42,827 bases of DNA, from the NCBI GenBank assembly GCA_903927905.1, contig CAIYOY010000037.1, positions 1-42,827 on the forward strand, written 5' to 3'. Both the position numbers and the translations under genes were made by a program. The DNA comes from an uncultured Verrucomicrobiales bacterium (GTDB lineage Bacteria; Verrucomicrobiota; Verrucomicrobiia; Limisphaerales; Palsa-1400). Below the pieces are notes generated by a model. The model searched no databases and had not been told where the DNA came from. It was given only the letters and a program-made list of their open reading frames with translations. This document shows, piece after piece, positions 6,527 through 16,724 of the stretch (positions are counted from its first letter, which is position 1; the number at the start of each line of letters is the position of its first letter).

Positions 6527-7797
6527 TTGGCAAAATGTTTGATCACTTTGATCAGACCGGCGGAGATTTGTTCCATGTCCGAAACGGTGTAGGTCGGGAA
6601 CGCAAAACAAGTGAAGGTGTGCGTTTCGTGCCAGCGGGCGTTGGGCACATCCACGTTGGTGTAATCCACACTCGATGCCGTGGCATATTCCTTCGATTTG
6701 AACGGGAAACCGGAGCGGCCGAACGCATTTTTTTCCGTGAACGCTTTCTCCGTGTGACATTGCGGCCAGAACACTTTCCAGCAGGGAACGCCCTCGGCGG
6801 CGGCGGCTACAACAAACTCTTTGATGTCGCATTTCATCTCTTCGATGTTCAGCGAGAAAGCGCAGACGAACCAGCCGTTGCGCCGCTCTTCCGTGTCAAT
6901 CGGACAGAATTTGATCTGCGGCAGGGGCCGGAGCGCGTCCACCAGGATCTTGGCGTTGCGGCGGCGGGCGGGCATGTTCCAATTATCCATCCGCTCCAAT
7001 TCCGCCAGGCCGATGGCCGATTGCATTTCGGTCATGCGATAATTCCAGCCGACGACGTTGTGGATGTAGGGAAGTTTTTGTTCGAGTTCCAAAAGATTCA
7101 AGCGCTGCTTCACATCGTAACCGTGATCGCGAAAGCTCCGCGCGAGCCAGGCAAGATCTTCGTTGTCGGTCGTGACCATGCCGCCTTCGCCGCCGGTGGT
7201 GAAAGTTTTGTTCTGGCAAAAGCTGCATCCGGCCATGTCGCTCAACGTGCCGGTTTTCTTGCCTTTATATTCGCCGCCGAAGGCTTCGGCATTGTCCTCG
7301 ATGACGAACAATTTGTGCTTCTTGGCGAATGCGCGGACCTTGTCCATGTCCGCGACGTTGCCGTAGAGATGCACCGGCATGATGGCCTTGGTGCGGTCAG
7401 TGACCAATTTCTCAGCGGATTCAATGCTGATGCAATGATCGTCCAGATTCACATCCGCAAAACGGGGAACCGCGCCGGCCTGCACGATGGAAAAACTCGA
7501 AGCGATGAAGGTGTAGCTCGGCACGATCACTTCGTCGCCCGGCCCGATGCCGAGGACTGCCAATGATACATGCAACGCCGCCGTGCCGGTGGCCACGCTG
7601 ACGGCGTATTTGCTGCCCTGCCATTCAGCGAATTTTTTCTCGAAGTCCATGCCTTTTTTTCCGGTCCAGTAATTGACCTTGCCGGAGCGCATCACTTCCT
7701 CGACGGCTTTGATGGCCTTCTCATCGAAGTGGGGCCAGGATTGAAGTTTGTTGGTAACGGCCTTTGGGCCGCCTTGGATTGCGAGTTTGTCATTCAT
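6523..7797 (-). CDS. DegT/DnrJ/EryC1/StrS family aminotransferase
   Basis: GSKYAVSVATGTAALHVSLAVLGIGPGDEVIVPSYTFIASSFSIVQAGAVPRFADV; PVHLYGNVADMDKV; SFCQNKTFTTGGEGGMVTTD PLP-Lys motif. Start assigned to MNDKLAIQ. Confidence 0.94.
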   Translation of the reverse strand: MNDKLAIQGGPKAVTNKLQSWPHFDEKAIKAVEEVMRSGKVNYWTGKKGMDFEKKFAEWQGSKYAVSVATGTAALHVSLAVLGIGPGDEVIVPSYTFIASSFSIVQAGAVPRFADVNLDDHCISIESAEKLVTDRTKAIMPVHLYGNVADMDKVRAFAKKHKLFVIEDNAEAFGGEYKGKKTGTLSDMAGCSFCQNKTFTTGGEGGMVTTDNEDLAWLARSFRDHGYDVKQRLNLLELEQKLPYIHNVVGWNYRMTEMQSAIGLAELERMDNWNMPARRRNAKILVDALRPLPQIKFCPIDTEERRNGWFVCAFSLNIEEMKCDIKEFVVAAAAEGVPCWKVFWPQCHTEKAFTEKNAFGRSGFPFKSKEYATASSVDYTNVDVPNARWHETHTFTCFAFPTYTVSDMEQISAGLIKVIKHFAK

Positions 7798-7869
7798 AAG
7801 ATTAAAATTGTTGTCGGAATCATTTAACCGCAAAGCACGCATGGAACGCAAATTTTTTCATGGGCGAAC

Positions 7870-7929
7870 CTTGTTTTGCCTTGTTTTACCTTTATTTGGC
7901 TTGTTCTGCCTTGATTTACCTTTACGAGG
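7870..7929. repeat. degenerate 10-bp-period tandem repeat (6 units, also readable as 2 x 30 bp)
   Basis: cttgttttgc cttgttttac ctttatttgg cttgttctgc cttgatttac ctttacgagg. Confidence 0.75.
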
Positions 7930-7936
7930 GATGGGG

Positions 7937-8140
7937 AATTTTTAACCACGGATGACACGGATAACACGGATAGGGGAAAGAAGGCTTTGCCCGCGAAAAA
8001 TGCGAAAAAACGCGAAATGGAACGGGCGACTGACCCAACGGGAACACGATGGTTTGGCGTGGTCACGGTATATGGCTGTTCTTTATTCATCAGGAGGAGT
8101 TTGGCAGAAAACAGCATGCTTGTCGTGTACACCATGGACA
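7937..8140 (+). repeat. dispersed intergenic repeat, copy A (about 200 bp)
   Basis: aatttttaaccacggatgacac...gcccgcgaaaaatgcgaaaaaacgcgaaa...gtatatggctgttctttattcatcaggaggagtttggcagaaaacagcatgcttgtcgt..acaccatg matches 32534-32733 along its length, same orientation. Confidence 0.9.
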
Positions 8141-8196
8141 CGGTTCACCGAACCATCTTCCCGGTCAGGTGGAATGCAATCTGTGCTTCGCCTAAA

Positions 8197-9020
8197 CACC
8201 TTTAATCAACAACATCCGTTTTGGAATTTTCTGTGGGAAATAACTGAACCCAAAGTGGTGAATGATGTAATTCCTGCCTTGGAAAAGCGTAAAGAAGTTA
8301 TCAAAAGAAGACTCGAACGAGTTCGCCCTCCAGAGTTGGTCGGCTTAGAAGAGGCGGCAAAACCCGTAATAGAAAAACGATTGGAAAGAGATTTAAGGGA
8401 CATCGAAAGCTCACTGGACAAACTTAAAAAATACACAAAAAAAGACTTCATTTCTGAGCTTGAGCGACAAATTGCATCAGCCATGTATGTTTGTCGGAAC
8501 TTTCTCCCAATTGGCGTTGTTAGAGACGAAAAATATGACCAAAAAGGGGCGTTTAATAATTTGGAAGAATTCAATACTATTAGTTATGAACTGACAGCAC
8601 TTGCCGGGCTCGTTGTTTTCGCGGCCAGCAGTCTCCGAGCAGTTTTTGAAAGCATAATTTATATCGGGCCTCTTCGAGATTATCCTGAACGTCATTACAT
8701 TTTTAGCGGTAATTTGGCCAAACATGTTGGCAAGTCGGGAAAAATGGTTCCAGATGTTTTGTTTAAAAGCGATGATCTTGTAAAGCAGGTGAACCTTCAA
8801 CTCGAATCATTTGGACTTGGGTAGCCAACATCTTATTTTAAGGCTTCAAAGGCTGGTTCGCCAGGGCAAGCTATCTCCGCAAGATGTTTCGGTTATTTAT
8901 GTCGACCGTCAAAACGGCGGTTCCAATTGCGTCGAGCTTCGTCTGGATAAAAGTGGTGATTTTATCGACAAATGGCCGCAAGGTTTTTTTGAGGAAGGAT
9001 ACAACGAGGTGTTTTCTTAG
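8197..9020 (+). pseudogene. decayed AAA ATPase of the DUF3696/OLD-like type
   Basis: ESIIYIGPLRDYPERHYIFSGNLAKHVGKSGKMVPDVLF...VNLQLESFGLG (frame 2), then with a frame change SQHLILRLQRLVRQGKLSPQDVSVIYVDRQNGGSNCVELRLDKSGDFIDKWPQGFFEEGYNEVF (frame 3), the typical C-terminus. Walker A N-terminus and the Walker B segment are absent. Confidence 0.75.
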
Positions 9021-9021
9021 T

Positions 9022-10035
9022 ATGCTTCTTCAAACTTCAATATCACCCAAATTGCTGGAAGAGGTGCCTGCTGACGTATTCGCACAAAAACTTTTTTGCA
9101 ATCTTTGGTTAGGATTGCTTTTTGATTTGGCAGAAAGTTGCGTTTTGATTTTACCAACAAACCATTCTAGCAGTCGTGATTATATGTTGGCTGTTTCTAA
9201 TTGGCCGACAAAATATCAAAAGCGGGCGCAAGAATTGGTTGCTATTTTACACCAACGCCATCGGTTCATTCCCTCCCCAAACCCATATTCCTCAACTGCA
9301 ACTTGTGCGTCTAATGATTGCCAATCGTTTGTTGACGTAAGTTTGGCGAATTTAGAAACCTTTCATTTTTCTACAGAGAGATGTTCGGGATGCCCCAACA
9401 TTTCTACTTTATCTTATCCCTCAATTGAAGCACTAGAATATTTTATTTCTGATTTTTCTCGTCGCAGGCGAATGGACATTTCACGAGTGCTAGCCGATGG
9501 CGAATGGACACGTTCTGATTTTGAAGCCAAGATTTTGAAACCGGTGTTCGCCACGGCAAAACACGTTAAGATTTATGATAGATACATTGGGAGAACATCT
9601 CTGGGCGCCAATTATAAACAAACAATTGAGTGGATTGTAAGTGTTTTCCAAAGTGTTGGCGGAGGTACAAGAGGGGGGGTGTTTGAGATTTATAGTGGTA
9701 TAAAAAACACGCCAAACGCTAGCATGAGACGCCGCATTAAAACAGAAATGCAGACTTTTGCTACGCAACTACAAGCTGCGACAGGGGTAGCTGTGCAAAT
9801 AATTTTAAAAAGTGAATCGAGTTCTGCACAATGTCCTCATGGACGGTACCTTGTGACCGATCAAGTTTCTGTATTAATCGATCGCGGGTTTGATCTTTTG
9901 TGGGATGATGCAAAAATGTTCGGTGTTGGCCTTAATCCAACTGTTGATCCAAGGCCCATTCGAGATGTAGCTGTTATTATGTGCAACTCTTGTCATAGCG
10001 TTGACGCACAAACTAGATCGTTGCCAGCTTTTTGA
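9022..10035 (+). CDS. uncharacterised protein coupled to the ATPase remnant; possible PLD-like/MIT_C-like C-terminal domain
   Basis: ATG one base after the stop of the upstream ORF (TAGTATG); 337 aa from MLLQTSISPKLLEE; motifs HVKIYDRYIGRT...GVFEIYSG...HGRYLVTDQVSVLIDRGFDLLW. Family assignment tentative. Confidence 0.6.
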   Translation: MLLQTSISPKLLEEVPADVFAQKLFCNLWLGLLFDLAESCVLILPTNHSSSRDYMLAVSNWPTKYQKRAQELVAILHQRHRFIPSPNPYSSTATCASNDCQSFVDVSLANLETFHFSTERCSGCPNISTLSYPSIEALEYFISDFSRRRRMDISRVLADGEWTRSDFEAKILKPVFATAKHVKIYDRYIGRTSLGANYKQTIEWIVSVFQSVGGGTRGGVFEIYSGIKNTPNASMRRRIKTEMQTFATQLQAATGVAVQIILKSESSSAQCPHGRYLVTDQVSVLIDRGFDLLWDDAKMFGVGLNPTVDPRPIRDVAVIMCNSCHSVDAQTRSLPAF

Positions 10036-10045
10036 GTAAACAACT

Positions 10046-10100
10046 CGTGTTCCCCCGGCTTCTTCACCGGCATCGTGTGCATCGGATGGCTGTGGAGAAA
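10046..10100 (-). pseudogene. diverged remnant of an lpd 3' end
   Basis: minus strand reads LHSHPMHTMPVKKPGE, versus VFYGHPTHTMPTKKREE at the end of the intact lpd; about 80% nucleotide identity over about 44 bp by hand alignment. Confidence 0.6.
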
Positions 10101-11715: not shown

Positions 11716-11831
11716 TGCGTATGTCTTTCTAAAAAATCAGCTTGAACCATCTTAAGAACGGCAGGGCAGACTTGCAACAATTCTTCCAAGGATTGACTTT
11801 TTTAAAGAAGGTCTTCACCCGCTCGCAATCT

Positions 11832-13157
11832 TTAAAAATTCCGAATGGAGCCGTTGGGCATGATGGTGTTGTTGAAAACAGCTCCTGAGAAATTGGCCCC
11901 GTTGGTCGTGGCATTACGCAGATTGGCTCCCGTAAAGTCGGCTGACGTAAAGACTGCTTGAGTAAGGTCGGCATTGGTCAATACGGCCCCGAAGAAATCA
12001 CAACCGCTACAATTGGCTTTTTTCAGGCTGGCCCCGCCAAAGTTGGCCGTTTCAAAAACCGAGGACGAACAAACCGTGTTGCTGAGATTCGCACCGGACA
12101 AATTTGCCCCGAGCAAAAGAATTGAACTCAAGTCCGACCCATGGAGGTCACGACCCGCTCCGAAATTTTGATTAAGAATCTGCCAAACCAGCCGCGACTT
12201 GGAATCTATGACCGTGGAACCATCCAGCAGCGCATTACGAAAATCAACAAACCGCAGGTTGGCATTGCTGAAATTTGCGCCGCGCAGATCGGCGGTCCGC
12301 AAATCGCTGGCGCTAAAATCAGAGCCACTCAATTTGGCCCCGGAGAATCCAGCCCCGATCAAAGATGCGAAACTTAGGTCGGTGTTGGTTAGGACGGCAT
12401 TGGTCGCCCCCTGATTCACGATTTGCCATATCAGCCTGGGCTTTGGATCAATCAACGTGTCCGAATCAAGTTTCATCCCTTTGTAAATCGCAAAATCGAG
12501 GCTCGCCCCGGTCAAAATCGCGGAGCTAAAATCCGCCCCGGACAAATCGGCATTAGACAGGTCGGCGTCCTCGAAGTTTCCGAAACTCGCGTCCGCACCG
12601 CTCAAGTCGGCCCCCGCAAACACAGCTTGAAAAGCAAGAGCGTCGAAAAAACTGGCTTGAGTCACGGTGGCATCGGAAAAATCGGCCTGCCGCAAATCGG
12701 CTCCGCCAAAATCGGCCCCGGACAAATCGGCCTGAATAAAGCTGCTGCCCAAGAGATTTGCCCCAAAAAAATCAGCCCCGGCCAATTGACCAAAGGCCAG
12801 TTGAATCTGGTCCATTTGGGCATACTCCAGATTGATTATAGACTGCACGCGATAAAAGCTGCGGTTTGAATTGGAATCTGAAAAGACCACCAATTGGTTC
12901 AACGTCGGGGCGAATAATTCACCAACCGGCGTCCACGTCAACAAATCAGCGCTGCGTTCAACCTGGAACGTGGGCACGATCAAAAAATCTCCAAGCGGAG
13001 TGGCGGCCTGTGCTTTCCAAGCAAGGGCAATTTGATTCCGGTTGGTGGGTATCAGGCCAAGGGTAAAGGCACGCTGGGCCTGGGCGGTAAAATGGCCGCA
13101 AACCACGACGGTGGCAGCCAGAAGCAAAACTAAATTGTTATAGGGGCGGGATTTCAT
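11832..13157 (-). CDS. secreted pentapeptide-repeat protein
   Basis: signal peptide MKSRPYNNLVLLLAATVVVCGHFTAQAQ; many A(D/N)LSxA-type pentapeptides; two interspersed (D)xxTxIDxKxRLxWQIxNQ segments. Confidence 0.9.
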   Translation of the reverse strand: MKSRPYNNLVLLLAATVVVCGHFTAQAQRAFTLGLIPTNRNQIALAWKAQAATPLGDFLIVPTFQVERSADLLTWTPVGELFAPTLNQLVVFSDSNSNRSFYRVQSIINLEYAQMDQIQLAFGQLAGADFFGANLLGSSFIQADLSGADFGGADLRQADFSDATVTQASFFDALAFQAVFAGADLSGADASFGNFEDADLSNADLSGADFSSAILTGASLDFAIYKGMKLDSDTLIDPKPRLIWQIVNQGATNAVLTNTDLSFASLIGAGFSGAKLSGSDFSASDLRTADLRGANFSNANLRFVDFRNALLDGSTVIDSKSRLVWQILNQNFGAGRDLHGSDLSSILLLGANLSGANLSNTVCSSSVFETANFGGASLKKANCSGCDFFGAVLTNADLTQAVFTSADFTGANLRNATTNGANFSGAVFNNTIMPNGSIRNF

Positions 13158-16100
13158 GGCAGTGCTCGCACGCGATAAAACCGGCTACCGTTAGTCACGG
13201 CTGGATCAATCAGCAGGCTGAGGGTGTTAGTCGCCGTGATAACTGCGGGCCAATCAATCCAGGCCGGATCATTCAGATTGTTTTTATATTGCACGCGATA
13301 AATCAGCCCCGGAATGGAATTCCAGCCGATCAACATTCCACCGCTGTTGAAGGAGGCGCTGGCCCCCAGATCGGCCGCTGTAATGGTGAAGGTCTTTTGA
13401 TCACTCTTGTTGGGAGTTCCATGGTCGGTTACGACAACCGTGACCGTGTTGGTAAGGACTCCGGGCGGTCCGGTTGGAATCCAGTTGAACAGCCCGCTGA
13501 CCGGATCGATCGCAGCCCCAGGCGGCGAGTTGCCGGCCAGGCTAAAGGTTAAAATCTGAGCTGGGATATCGTCATCCACTGCGGTGAAATTCAAGGTCAA
13601 TAAATGTCCTTTAAGAGCAGCGACGGAAATTGGGACCACTCCCAACCTGGGTGGAGTGTTGGTGGCCAGGGAGAGAGGGTTGGCTGGATCAGAGCCGAAA
13701 TCAAGTTCATCGCGATCCAGATAACCATCAGCATCCCGGTCAATTCCAAGGCGTCTACCGGAGCCGCCCGGCACAATGGTATAAGTTTGCTCCGCGCCAT
13801 CCGCTGCCAGTGATCGCAACGAACTTGCCGTTTCTGACTCTGACTGGCGGTCGGAAAGAAATTTTCCCGTCGTTCGGTCATAAAACCATCCGCGTGGAAT
13901 CCCGGCCTTGAAGCCTTTGACCACCAGGTCCACCCCGCTGGCACTGGAATTAGCCAATGAAATCATGCTGTCAATTAATGGCACAGTGGCCGGATTTTTG
14001 ATGGTGATCTGGCGCCCCACTGCAGCCGGCGTGTCCAGGCTCGCCACTCCCGGAGCATGATTGGGATCCGTGACCGTTCCTCCGGTCAGGGCCGAACCAG
14101 AGCCCGAAAGCGACAGCACAAAGGACACCAGATCGGCGGTGGCTTGATCATCGGTCACGCCGAACCCATCCTGGATGAAGCGAACCAGGGAATCCACGCT
14201 GCCATCATGGCTGAACCCGAACCCAGCCCGGCTATTGGTGTGCATCAGATCCAGGCCGAATTTATCCGCCATGTTGCGCAACTGCGGAACTTTGAATGGC
14301 AATTGAGCGGAACGCTCCAGTTCAATCGAAGCGATATGATGCGCGGAATTGGTCGCGAGCGGCACGCTTACCCATTGCGATCCGATGAATTGCCGGTCGC
14401 TCCCCAAACCCGTGGGGATGGTATGGCAAGTGGTGCAGACATTGGCCAGTTGTGGAATGGAAGCATTCGGCAGGCGAAATAAATTCTGGCCGGACTGGGG
14501 ATTTCCGTTGCTCAATTGGGTTCCAGCCGGGGAAGCTCCCCGACCGAGGGCAAAGAAGCCCGGGAGAGGAAGATTGGTCGTCAAAGAATTATCAAATTGT
14601 CGGAAAGGGTTTGGCGGGAAGCGGACGGTCGCCAAAAAACTCTTGAACTCGGCCATTTCGTTGGTCGCCAGTCCGCTTGTCGCCGCCTGCAAATTAGTGA
14701 ACGTGCTGTCGAATTGCTCAATGCTGTCGCGGTCGCCGCGCCAGTGAAAGGGTTCGTGGCCGATGATATCTTGCAAGGTCTGGGTGGTCATAGGGCCCTT
14801 CATCGGATGAAAATTATTCGTTGAGGCCGGAGAAAAAACAAAATTGATGTTGGTGATCACCTTGGCCACATCGGTGGGATCACCCAAGTCCCACGCCAAC
14901 CGGTCAAAACGGGTATCCACATGGCACGAGGCACAAGCGAGTTGACCCAGGCCGGAAGTCTGATGGGTGTTATAAAGATGCCGGCGCCCGGCGTTTATCA
15001 CCGGCGGGGTAGGATCAAAAAACGGATGTGTATCCACCACTTTTTCCGCCGTGAGGTCAACGCTGGTAACACTGCCTTCAAACCGGTTGTAGATATACAA
15101 CCGATTGCGGGCCTCGTCCAAGGCCAGTCCCGTCGGGCCTCGCCCAAGATCAATCGAGGGATTTAAACCCACGCGATTTCCATTCGCGTCAATTATCACC
15201 AGATTATCAGACCCCAATCCGGTGACATAACCACGCGTGCCCGCCGAATTCCAGACGATTCCGCGAGGATCCCCAATAGATTTGTTGCGTTCGGCCATCG
15301 AAACCTGGCGCGTCTGATAGGTCAGATGCGGATTCAAGTCTGAAACCACGCTGGTCAAATCCGACGGGTTTACTTGCGCGAGGTTTACCCGAATAAAGAT
15401 CCCTTGCAAGACGGGTTGGAACCGGAGGTTATTGAGAGCATCCGTGCCAATCACGCTGACCGTTCCTGAAGCCGGGTTGACCGCGAGCGCCATGCAGATG
15501 TTCATCAAGCCGGTGGCATAATGGATGGACAGGTTTGCTGTGTCAACTACTGCCAAATCATGATCCGGCAGATCCCATCCTGGAATGCGCCCGGTAAAAG
15601 CAGCATTGGTCCCCCGAATATATTCGGTCCAATCCCCCGAATTGTCGTCCATCCAGCGGTTGGCGCTGTTTTTTTTCACGATTAGTCCCACCCGTGGCGG
15701 TGGATTGGTAATGACCGGATTGATCAGCGGAATAAAATTGGTCCCTGCGTTAGGCGGTGGATTCAGCCCAAGAGACGGTGCATTGGGGAAATTGACCGGA
15801 CTCGGACGGGGCAGCCCCTGCGAAATACCCGGGCCAATAATCGTGGAGGCGTTGCCGGATTCAAATATGGCCACATAAACTTTCGACCCATCTGGGCTGA
15901 CATCCATCGCCCGCGGGCGATTTCCGTCTATGGCCAGATTTGTGGTCAGGAGCAGGCTGGCCGGATCAAAAACCTGAACCAGATTTGGTTGACCGCAGGA
16001 AATGTAAGCCCGTGGCGGCGAGCTGGCAAAGACCACGTCGGAAGGCTCGTTTGAAGTGGTTAGCGTATTGAACACCCGCTGGCTCGGCACATCAATGATG

Positions 16101-16408
16101 CTGACCGAATCTGAAATATAATTGACAACCCATGCTTCCGAAGCGGTGCGAAAACGCACGGTCACCGGATCAAGCCCGACCGGAATGCTGCCTTTGGCCA
16201 CTGGAATTCCCGAAGTGACATCAAACAGTTCCAGTCGATTATCGGGCAGATTACAAACGGCCAGAGTGTTGCCATCCGGACTCAAGGCCACCGGATGCAC
16301 CGGGATCGTTTCCCAATTAAAAAAATTGGTGGTATTAATTTGACCGTGCCCGTTGCCCGGCCAAAAAATAAGCGCCACCGCCGCGATGATGAAAAGTTTT
16401 TTTCTCAC
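13154..16408 (-). CDS. secreted di-heme cytochrome with YncE-like beta-propeller and Ig/cadherin-like domain
   Basis: signal peptide; propeller-like repeats (HPVALSPDGNTLAVCNLPDNRLELFDV..., RPRAMDVSPDGSKVYVAIFESG); CASCH and CTTCH heme motifs; C-terminal ALKGHLLTLNFTAVDDDIPAQ..; ATGA overlap with downstream gene. Confidence 0.85.
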   Translation of the reverse strand: MRKKLFIIAAVALIFWPGNGHGQINTTNFFNWETIPVHPVALSPDGNTLAVCNLPDNRLELFDVTSGIPVAKGSIPVGLDPVTVRFRTASEAWVVNYISDSVSIIDVPSQRVFNTLTTSNEPSDVVFASSPPRAYISCGQPNLVQVFDPASLLLTTNLAIDGNRPRAMDVSPDGSKVYVAIFESGNASTIIGPGISQGLPRPSPVNFPNAPSLGLNPPPNAGTNFIPLINPVITNPPPRVGLIVKKNSANRWMDDNSGDWTEYIRGTNAAFTGRIPGWDLPDHDLAVVDTANLSIHYATGLMNICMALAVNPASGTVSVIGTDALNNLRFQPVLQGIFIRVNLAQVNPSDLTSVVSDLNPHLTYQTRQVSMAERNKSIGDPRGIVWNSAGTRGYVTGLGSDNLVIIDANGNRVGLNPSIDLGRGPTGLALDEARNRLYIYNRFEGSVTSVDLTAEKVVDTHPFFDPTPPVINAGRRHLYNTHQTSGLGQLACASCHVDTRFDRLAWDLGDPTDVAKVITNINFVFSPASTNNFHPMKGPMTTQTLQDIIGHEPFHWRGDRDSIEQFDSTFTNLQAATSGLATNEMAEFKSFLATVRFPPNPFRQFDNSLTTNLPLPGFFALGRGASPAGTQLSNGNPQSGQNLFRLPNASIPQLANVCTTCHTIPTGLGSDRQFIGSQWVSVPLATNSAHHIASIELERSAQLPFKVPQLRNMADKFGLDLMHTNSRAGFGFSHDGSVDSLVRFIQDGFGVTDDQATADLVSFVLSLSGSGSALTGGTVTDPNHAPGVASLDTPAAVGRQITIKNPATVPLIDSMISLANSSASGVDLVVKGFKAGIPRGWFYDRTTGKFLSDRQSESETASSLRSLAADGAEQTYTIVPGGSGRRLGIDRDADGYLDRDELDFGSDPANPLSLATNTPPRLGVVPISVAALKGHLLTLNFTAVDDDIPAQILTFSLAGNSPPGAAIDPVSGLFNWIPTGPPGVLTNTVTVVVTDHGTPNKSDQKTFTITAADLGASASFNSGGMLIGWNSIPGLIYRVQYKNNLNDPAWIDWPAVITATNTLSLLIDPAVTNGSRFYRVRALP

Positions 16409-16693
16409 GCCGGAAGCGGTGATAGCTAATACCGTGCCGTACGCGTATCAACCATTCACTGATCAAATGATTTGTTTGTAATGACCAACGGATTTCATGA
16501 TTTTTACTTTGCCGGCGGAAGATATTGACTCATTCCTTGGACTGGGAAACACGCGGCCATACTGCCTTAACTAAGAGCTAATCAACCTGGCAATGCGTGG
16601 ACGCCACTCGTGTCATATAAGATTCACGCAGGTCATCAAACGAAGTTGTCAAACCGTTTTACCTTGCCAGCCAAAGGCTTCGGACGACCCGAT

Positions 16694-16715
16694 GGTGTGC
16701 GGTGATACGCACACC
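16694..16715 (-). terminator. stem-loop just downstream of the E2 stop codon
   Basis: GGTGTGCG-6 nt-CGCACACC perfect 8-bp stem 9 bp past the E2 stop; no clear U-tract. Confidence 0.4.
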
Positions 16716-16724
16716 CCCTTCCCG

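What the first reader, a model, noticed from the sequence alone, without database searches (positions are those of the whole stretch)
8811..10035. Uncharacterised gene tightly coupled to an OLD/DUF3696-type ATPase: candidate two-gene defence-like system
The downstream ORF begins one base after the ATPase stop (TAGTATG), suggesting translational coupling and a functional pair. The protein has no family I recognise with confidence. Its C-terminal half (HVKIYDRYIGRT...GVFEIYSG...HGRYLVTDQVSVLIDRGFDLLW) resembles PLD-like/MIT_C-type folds by motif spacing, and its N-terminal half has several paired cysteines (CASNDC, CSGC). ATPase plus small effector-like partner is the organisation of several known anti-phage systems (for example OLD-nuclease and AriA/AriB types), but I cannot match this one to a named system. 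The partner ORF is intact while the ATPase is decayed.
Basis: partly seen in the sequence, partly recalled or inferred. Interest (0 to 1): 0.72.

Follow-up and report, generated by a model that had tools for sequence, protein, structure and literature searches.

The report
Relic of an ATPase–PLD-like defence pair
The gene is the intact second half of a horizontally acquired two-gene module whose ATPase half is destroyed here; related pairs sit in phage-defence neighbourhoods of several bacterial phyla, so this copy is probably a non-working relic of a poorly known variant of a known kind of defence system.

Summary
The 337-aa ORF (9022-10035) starts 1 base after the stop of a DUF3696 ATPase remnant that has lost Walker A, Walker B and its middle. 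The pair lies in an AT-rich patch (40-44% GC; flanks 50-63%). Searching with the ORF alone found 10 relatives (16-24% identity) in Verrucomicrobiota, Desulfobacterota and a Bacteroidetes genome. All 10 follow a DUF3696-type ATPase or its remnant; where the junction could be measured (9) the gap is -1 to +5 bp. Four lie in type I R-M operons, one of these beside a type II CBASS-like locus; others sit after a PIWI-like gene, near Csx1/CARF and Fic, or before an Hhe-like helicase. The C-terminal half is one PLD-like (MIT_C-type) domain: best solved-structure match MITD1, then phospholipases D; D186, H273, R275, G289 and D291 are invariant in 13 sequences. The ATPase is NsnB-like. The partner weakly matches one PADLOC NsnC model (Menshen), only over the PLD-like domain, and NsnA (DUF262) is absent from the loci tested, so this is a Menshen-related pair, not proven Menshen. 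Here it is a relic. Verdict: new variant of a known kind; function inferred, not shown.

The parts
8570..8794 (+). Remnant of the DUF3696 ATPase, middle part (frame of ORF 7952-8824; '...YIGPLRDYPERH...')
   Evidence: tblastn of L012, L017, L018 and L010 ATPases, E 9e-7 to 3e-4
8799..9020 (+). Remnant of the DUF3696 ATPase, C-terminal part in another frame ('SQHLILRLQRLV...WPQGFFEEGYNEVFS', stop TAG 9018-9020); Walker A, Walker B and the middle are gone
   Evidence: PF12476 1e-6; 53% identity over 64 aa to the L013 ATPase, E=5e-19; motif scan negative in six frames
9006..9009 (+). GAGG, possible weak Shine-Dalgarno sequence inside the ATPase end, 12 nt before the ATG
   Evidence: sequence; GAG/GGAG-like stretches lie at a similar place in several relatives; inference
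9022..10035 (+). Intact partner gene, 337 aa (P0001)
   Evidence: relatives
9529..9921 (+). PLD-like (MIT_C-type) domain of the partner, aa 170-300
   Evidence: PADLOC NsnC PDLC03880; Foldseek MITD1 4a5z_B E=1.2e-4, prob 1.00
9577..9579 (+). Codon of invariant D186
   Evidence: alignment A9, 13 sequences
9838..9861 (+). HGRYLVTD (aa 273-280): H-x-R-x4-D, resembling a PLD HxK motif with K replaced by R; H273 and R275 invariant, the D is not
   Evidence: alignment A9
9886..9894 (+). Codons of G289 to D291; G289 and D291 invariant
   Evidence: alignment A9
7950..10050 (.). AT-rich patch holding the pair (GC 0.40-0.47 against 0.50-0.63 around it), probably acquired horizontally
   Evidence: composition profile; no match in the 5 other genomes of the family

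Best explanation
The locus is the decayed remnant of a horizontally acquired two-gene module: an OLD/ABC-type ATPase with a DUF3696 C-terminus (NsnB-like), translationally coupled to a PLD-like protein (N-terminal alpha/beta region plus one MIT_C-type PLD-like domain). In the intact module I infer that the ATPase dimer is the nucleotide-driven sensor/switch and the partner is the output, acting through its conserved D...HxR site on a phosphodiester (nucleic acid, nucleotide or lipid head group), and that the module backs up other defences, most often type I restriction-modification, in the manner of PrrC. Shown: the coupling, the ATPase family, the PLD-like fold, the invariant residues, the neighbourhoods, and the loss of the ATP-binding motifs here. 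Inferred: that it acts against phages, which gene senses and which acts, and the substrate. In this genome the ATPase is dead, so the remaining gene is probably silent or idle.
For: All 10 relatives found by searching with the partner alone have a DUF3696-type ATPase or its remnant directly upstream. DUF3696 occurs in only 8 of 116 related genomes, so chance adjacency is excluded. Junction gaps are -1 to +5 bp in the 9 measurable relatives, +1 in the window, and -4 and +10 in two further PLD-like partners found through the ATPase. Those two DUF3696 loci (L034, L035) have partners with HDRHLIS / HPRFLLT motifs. Defence context: type I R-M in L012, L017, L018, L049; type II CBASS-like proteins in L049; Hhe-like helicase and CARF-RtcR in L050; Csx1/CARF and Fic in L015; pAgo-like gene in L013. 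ATPases match NsnB, PDC-M55A, HEC-03B. PLD-like fold by Foldseek for two separately modelled members and MIT_C hits in 6 of 13 members (best 9e-4, below the Pfam cut-off). AT-rich island; ATPase motifs missing.
Against: No experiment. Structure models are modest (mean pLDDT 56 and 65; N-terminal half poor). MIT_C matches stay under Pfam's cut-off. The motif is HxR, not HxK, and MITD1's domain is not known to me as an enzyme, so catalysis is unproven. ATPase and partner do not co-diverge detectably (Spearman 0.24; 705 of 5000 permutations reach it) and the partner changes much faster (L017/L049: ATPases 73%, partners 38% identical), which could mean that the partner is the sensor or has been swapped. 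R-M association is 4 of 10 relatives, two of the four from one phylum.
Confidence: 0.75

Rival explanations
1. The PLD-like protein is the sensor/specificity component and the DUF3696 ATPase (with host factors or R-M) is the acting part.
For: The partner diverges far faster than the ATPase (L017/L049 ATPases 73% vs partners 38%; L034/L035 41% vs 18%), as components that meet phage proteins often do. An intact partner is left after ATPase decay in the window and in L010, so it is tolerated alone.
Against: No recognisable catalytic effector domain was found on the ATPase beyond AAA_21/AAA_15 and DUF3696; the partner keeps invariant D, H, R, G, D in a fold shared with many hydrolases.
Confidence: 0.25
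2. It is a true Menshen (NsnABC) locus that has lost NsnA, or whose NsnA lies elsewhere in the genome.
For: NsnB-like ATPase and an NsnC hit over the PLD-like domain (2.5e-6). A DUF262 gene exists elsewhere in this genome (C113).
Against: DUF262 is not on the contig of the pair in any genome searched (G982 and G934 not included). The same NsnC model also hits an ORF6N-like protein inside a type I R-M locus with no such ATPase in the 9 kb read, so the hit is to a shared domain. L017, L018, L034, L035 and L050 partners have no NsnC hit.
Confidence: 0.15
3. The remaining ORF has been co-opted and still has a function without the ATPase (for example an orphan phosphodiesterase or a regulator).
For: The ORF is full length and intact although the ATPase is heavily decayed; L010 shows the same pattern.
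Against: No relative was found without an ATPase or its remnant upstream; no close orthologue exists on which to test selection; L014 shows that the partner also decays, having lost its N-terminal part.
Confidence: 0.12

Closest known systems
Menshen (NsnA/NsnB/NsnC; Millman et al. 2022, discussed in PMC10952713)
   Same: NsnB-like DUF3696 ATPase; partner matches an NsnC model over the PLD-like domain
   Different: No NsnA (DUF262) gene at the tested loci; the partner hit covers about half the NsnC model, and several relatives do not hit it at all. Li et al. 2025 (10.1093/nar/gkaf357) on Menshen domain polymorphism could not be read here and may already cover this variant.
PADLOC candidates PDC-M55 and HEC-03
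   Same: The ATPase remnant and the intact relatives match PDC-M55A and HEC-03B about as well as NsnB
   Different: No partner model of either candidate was hit by the PLD-like protein
PARIS (AriA/AriB), Gabija (GajA), OLD
   Same: OLD/ABC-type ATPase core, weaker matches
   Different: No TOPRIM nuclease was found; the partner is PLD-like, not AriB or GajB
MITD1 C-terminal domain (MIT_C, PF16565) and phospholipase D
   Same: Fold of the C-terminal half and an H-x-R/K style motif
   Different: No MIT domain; one PLD-like domain seen rather than two; HxR in place of HxK; N-terminal region unassigned
PrrC-type guards inside type I R-M loci (from memory)
   Same: An ATPase-bearing module embedded in an hsd operon
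   Different: PrrC is one protein with an anticodon nuclease domain; here two genes and a PLD-like partner

Membership tests
Menshen | NsnB: OLD/AAA ATPase with DUF3696 C-terminus | tested here: met
   Remnant in the window; intact L017 ATPase NsnB 9.7e-47, L034 ATPase 3.4e-43
Menshen | NsnA: DUF262 gene in the locus | tested here: not met
   PF03235 hits lie on other contigs than the pair in every genome searched; none recognised in the loci read
Menshen | NsnC: third gene | tested here: inconclusive
   PDLC03880 at 2.5e-6, aa 170-300 only; 4 of 7 members hit at E<=1, others none; the model also hits an ORF6N-like protein
Menshen | Anti-phage activity | not testable with these tools
   needs a phage challenge
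PLD superfamily / MIT_C | PLD-like fold | tested here: met
   Foldseek top hits MITD1 and phospholipase D; models of modest confidence
PLD superfamily / MIT_C | Pfam MIT_C above its gathering score | tested here: not met
   best 19.6 bits against cut-off 25; 6 of 13 members at E<=1
PLD superfamily / MIT_C | Catalytic HxKx4D motif | tested here: not met
   HxR in all 13 sequences, D not invariant
PARIS / OLD nuclease pair | TOPRIM nuclease in the ATPase or its partner | tested here: not met
   no TOPRIM hit in P0001-P0003 or in the PLD-like relatives; an OLD-TOPRIM gene in L018 is a separate neighbour

The most novel reading that the evidence does not exclude
The DUF3696 ATPase plus PLD-like pair is an exchangeable alarm-and-output cassette that has been plugged behind different primary sensors (type I restriction-modification in three phyla, a PIWI-like protein once), acting as a guard that fires when the first defence is engaged or blocked.
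Probability: 0.25. Interest if true: 0.65.

Novelty: new variant of a known kind. Interest (0 to 1): 0.42.

Why it matters
It links a family of PLD-like proteins with no assigned role to NsnB-like defence ATPases and shows repeated placement of the pair inside type I R-M operons, which makes a guard hypothesis directly testable with intact pairs from other bacteria. The window copy is mainly of interest as a case where the ATPase decayed and the partner stayed open.

Tried and rejected
Searches of genome contigs with P0001 alone, plasmids with P0001 and the L017 partner and viral contigs with A5 found nothing; L034's partner found only two Methylocella plasmid records. Sequence search of solved structures gave only chance matches for the partner. 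Zinc-finger reading of the cysteines rejected: not conserved. Mirror-tree test not significant. Empty-site comparison failed: family genomes match only the pdh/lpd side. A recurring PIWI-ATPase-partner operon was not found (only the original genome). Literature searches for NsnB/NsnC, DUF3696 and COG4938 gave little; gkaf357 is not held.

Full report
Observation. The ORF at 9022-10035 is open for 337 codons, starts one base after the TAG (9018-9020) of the preceding frame, and that frame carries a DUF3696 C-terminus above the Pfam cut-off. Intact relatives of the ATPase match the window only over residues about 265-320 (8570-8794) and about 476-552 (8799-9017), in different frames; Walker A and Walker B motifs are absent from all six frames of 7400-9100. 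The finding is therefore correct that the partner is intact and the ATPase decayed. GC falls to 40-44% across 8000-10000 against 50-63% on both sides, and the gene is absent from the other five genomes of the family, which suggests horizontal acquisition.

Relatives. Searches with the partner only gave G056 (L010), G269 (L011=L016), G582 (L012=L019), G610 (L013), G480 (L014) and G549 (L015) in the phylum, a Desulfobacteraceae and a Bacteroidetes genome (L017, L018), and G982 and G934 in the phylum of L017 (L049, L050): ten relatives, 16-24% identical to P0001. Every one has the DUF3696-type ATPase or its remnant directly upstream; in L010 and L014 the ATPase is itself broken, and the L014 partner has lost its N-terminal part. 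Junction gaps were computed for the other nine (-1 to +5 bp), for the window (+1), and for L034 (+10) and L035 (-4), two further PLD-like partners found through the ATPase. DUF3696 is rare (8 of 116 related genomes), so the association is not chance. Other DUF3696 loci have other partners: an NsnC of another model (L029), or a PIN-like gene followed by a ligase-like gene (L030, L032) (the PIN and ligase labels are my reading of the sequences).

Neighbourhood. Type I R-M genes lie upstream in L012, L017, L018 and L049 (Pfam N6_Mtase, HsdM_N and Methylase_S; EcoEI_R_C and HSDR_N in L017; L049 specificity subunit by PADLOC). In L018 an OLD ATPase-TOPRIM gene stands between HsdS and the pair. L049 also holds a CD-NTase, E1-E2 and patatin set, that is, a type II CBASS-like locus. 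L050 has an Hhe-like helicase downstream and a CARF-RtcR gene upstream; L015 has Csx1/CARF and Fic genes; L013 has a pAgo-like gene 6 bp before the ATPase, seen once. L010 and L011 have no clear defence neighbours in the stretch read.

Fold. The best Foldseek match of the P0001 model in the PDB is MITD1 (4a5z_B, E=1.2e-4, probability 1.00), followed by phospholipases D; the better model of the L017 partner gives phospholipases D at E=4e-4 to 1e-3. Model confidence is modest (mean pLDDT 56 and 65), better in the C-terminal half of L017. Pfam MIT_C is hit by 6 of 13 members below its cut-off. In 13 aligned sequences D186, H273, R275, G289 and D291 are invariant. The motif is HxR rather than the HxK of PLD enzymes, so I do not claim catalysis.

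System. The ATPases match NsnB, PDC-M55A and HEC-03B. The partner matches one NsnC model over its PLD-like domain, but that model also hits an ORF6N-like protein between hsdM and an hsdS-like fragment (ORF6N is my reading), so it marks a domain, not membership. DUF262 (NsnA) is never on the contig of the pair in the genomes searched. I therefore place it next to Menshen, not in it. The paper on Menshen domain polymorphism (gkaf357) could not be read, and may already describe this partner.

How it works (inferred). ATPase dimer as nucleotide-driven switch, PLD-like partner as output, with type I R-M or another system as the watched or helping component. The faster divergence of the partner leaves open that it is the sensor instead. 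The survival of an intact partner without a working ATPase in the window and L010 suggests that the partner alone is not harmful.

Verdict. Real, conserved, defence-associated pair; relic in this genome; new variant of a known kind; interest 0.42.

Noticed in passing
L013:2557-4191 (+): A 544-aa pAgo/PIWI-like gene ends 6 bp before the DUF3696 ATPase and PLD-like pair, as if one operon; no second case in 360 genomes.
   Followed up: partly
L018:3270-5099 (+): An OLD-type ATPase with TOPRIM domain lies between HsdS and the DUF3696 pair, so two ATPase modules follow one type I R-M locus.
   Followed up: no
L030:4086-6703 and L032:1-2539: DUF3696 ATPase followed by a PIN-like gene ('VDTN') and a ligase-like gene in two genomes: another partner type (domain labels by eye).
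   Followed up: no
L057:473-1351 (-): An ORF6N-like protein with a C-terminal HDRF PLD-like domain lies between hsdM and an hsdS-like fragment; it is hit by the same NsnC model.
   Followed up: no
window 11716-16724: About 5 kb (pentapeptide-repeat-like protein and a large YVTN/cytochrome-like protein) separate lpd from the next pyruvate dehydrogenase-type gene, which is adjacent to lpd in four family genomes.
   Followed up: partly
control genome Sulfolobus acidocaldarius (no locus): The NsnC model PDLC03880 also rings in Sulfolobus acidocaldarius among the control genomes.
   Followed up: no
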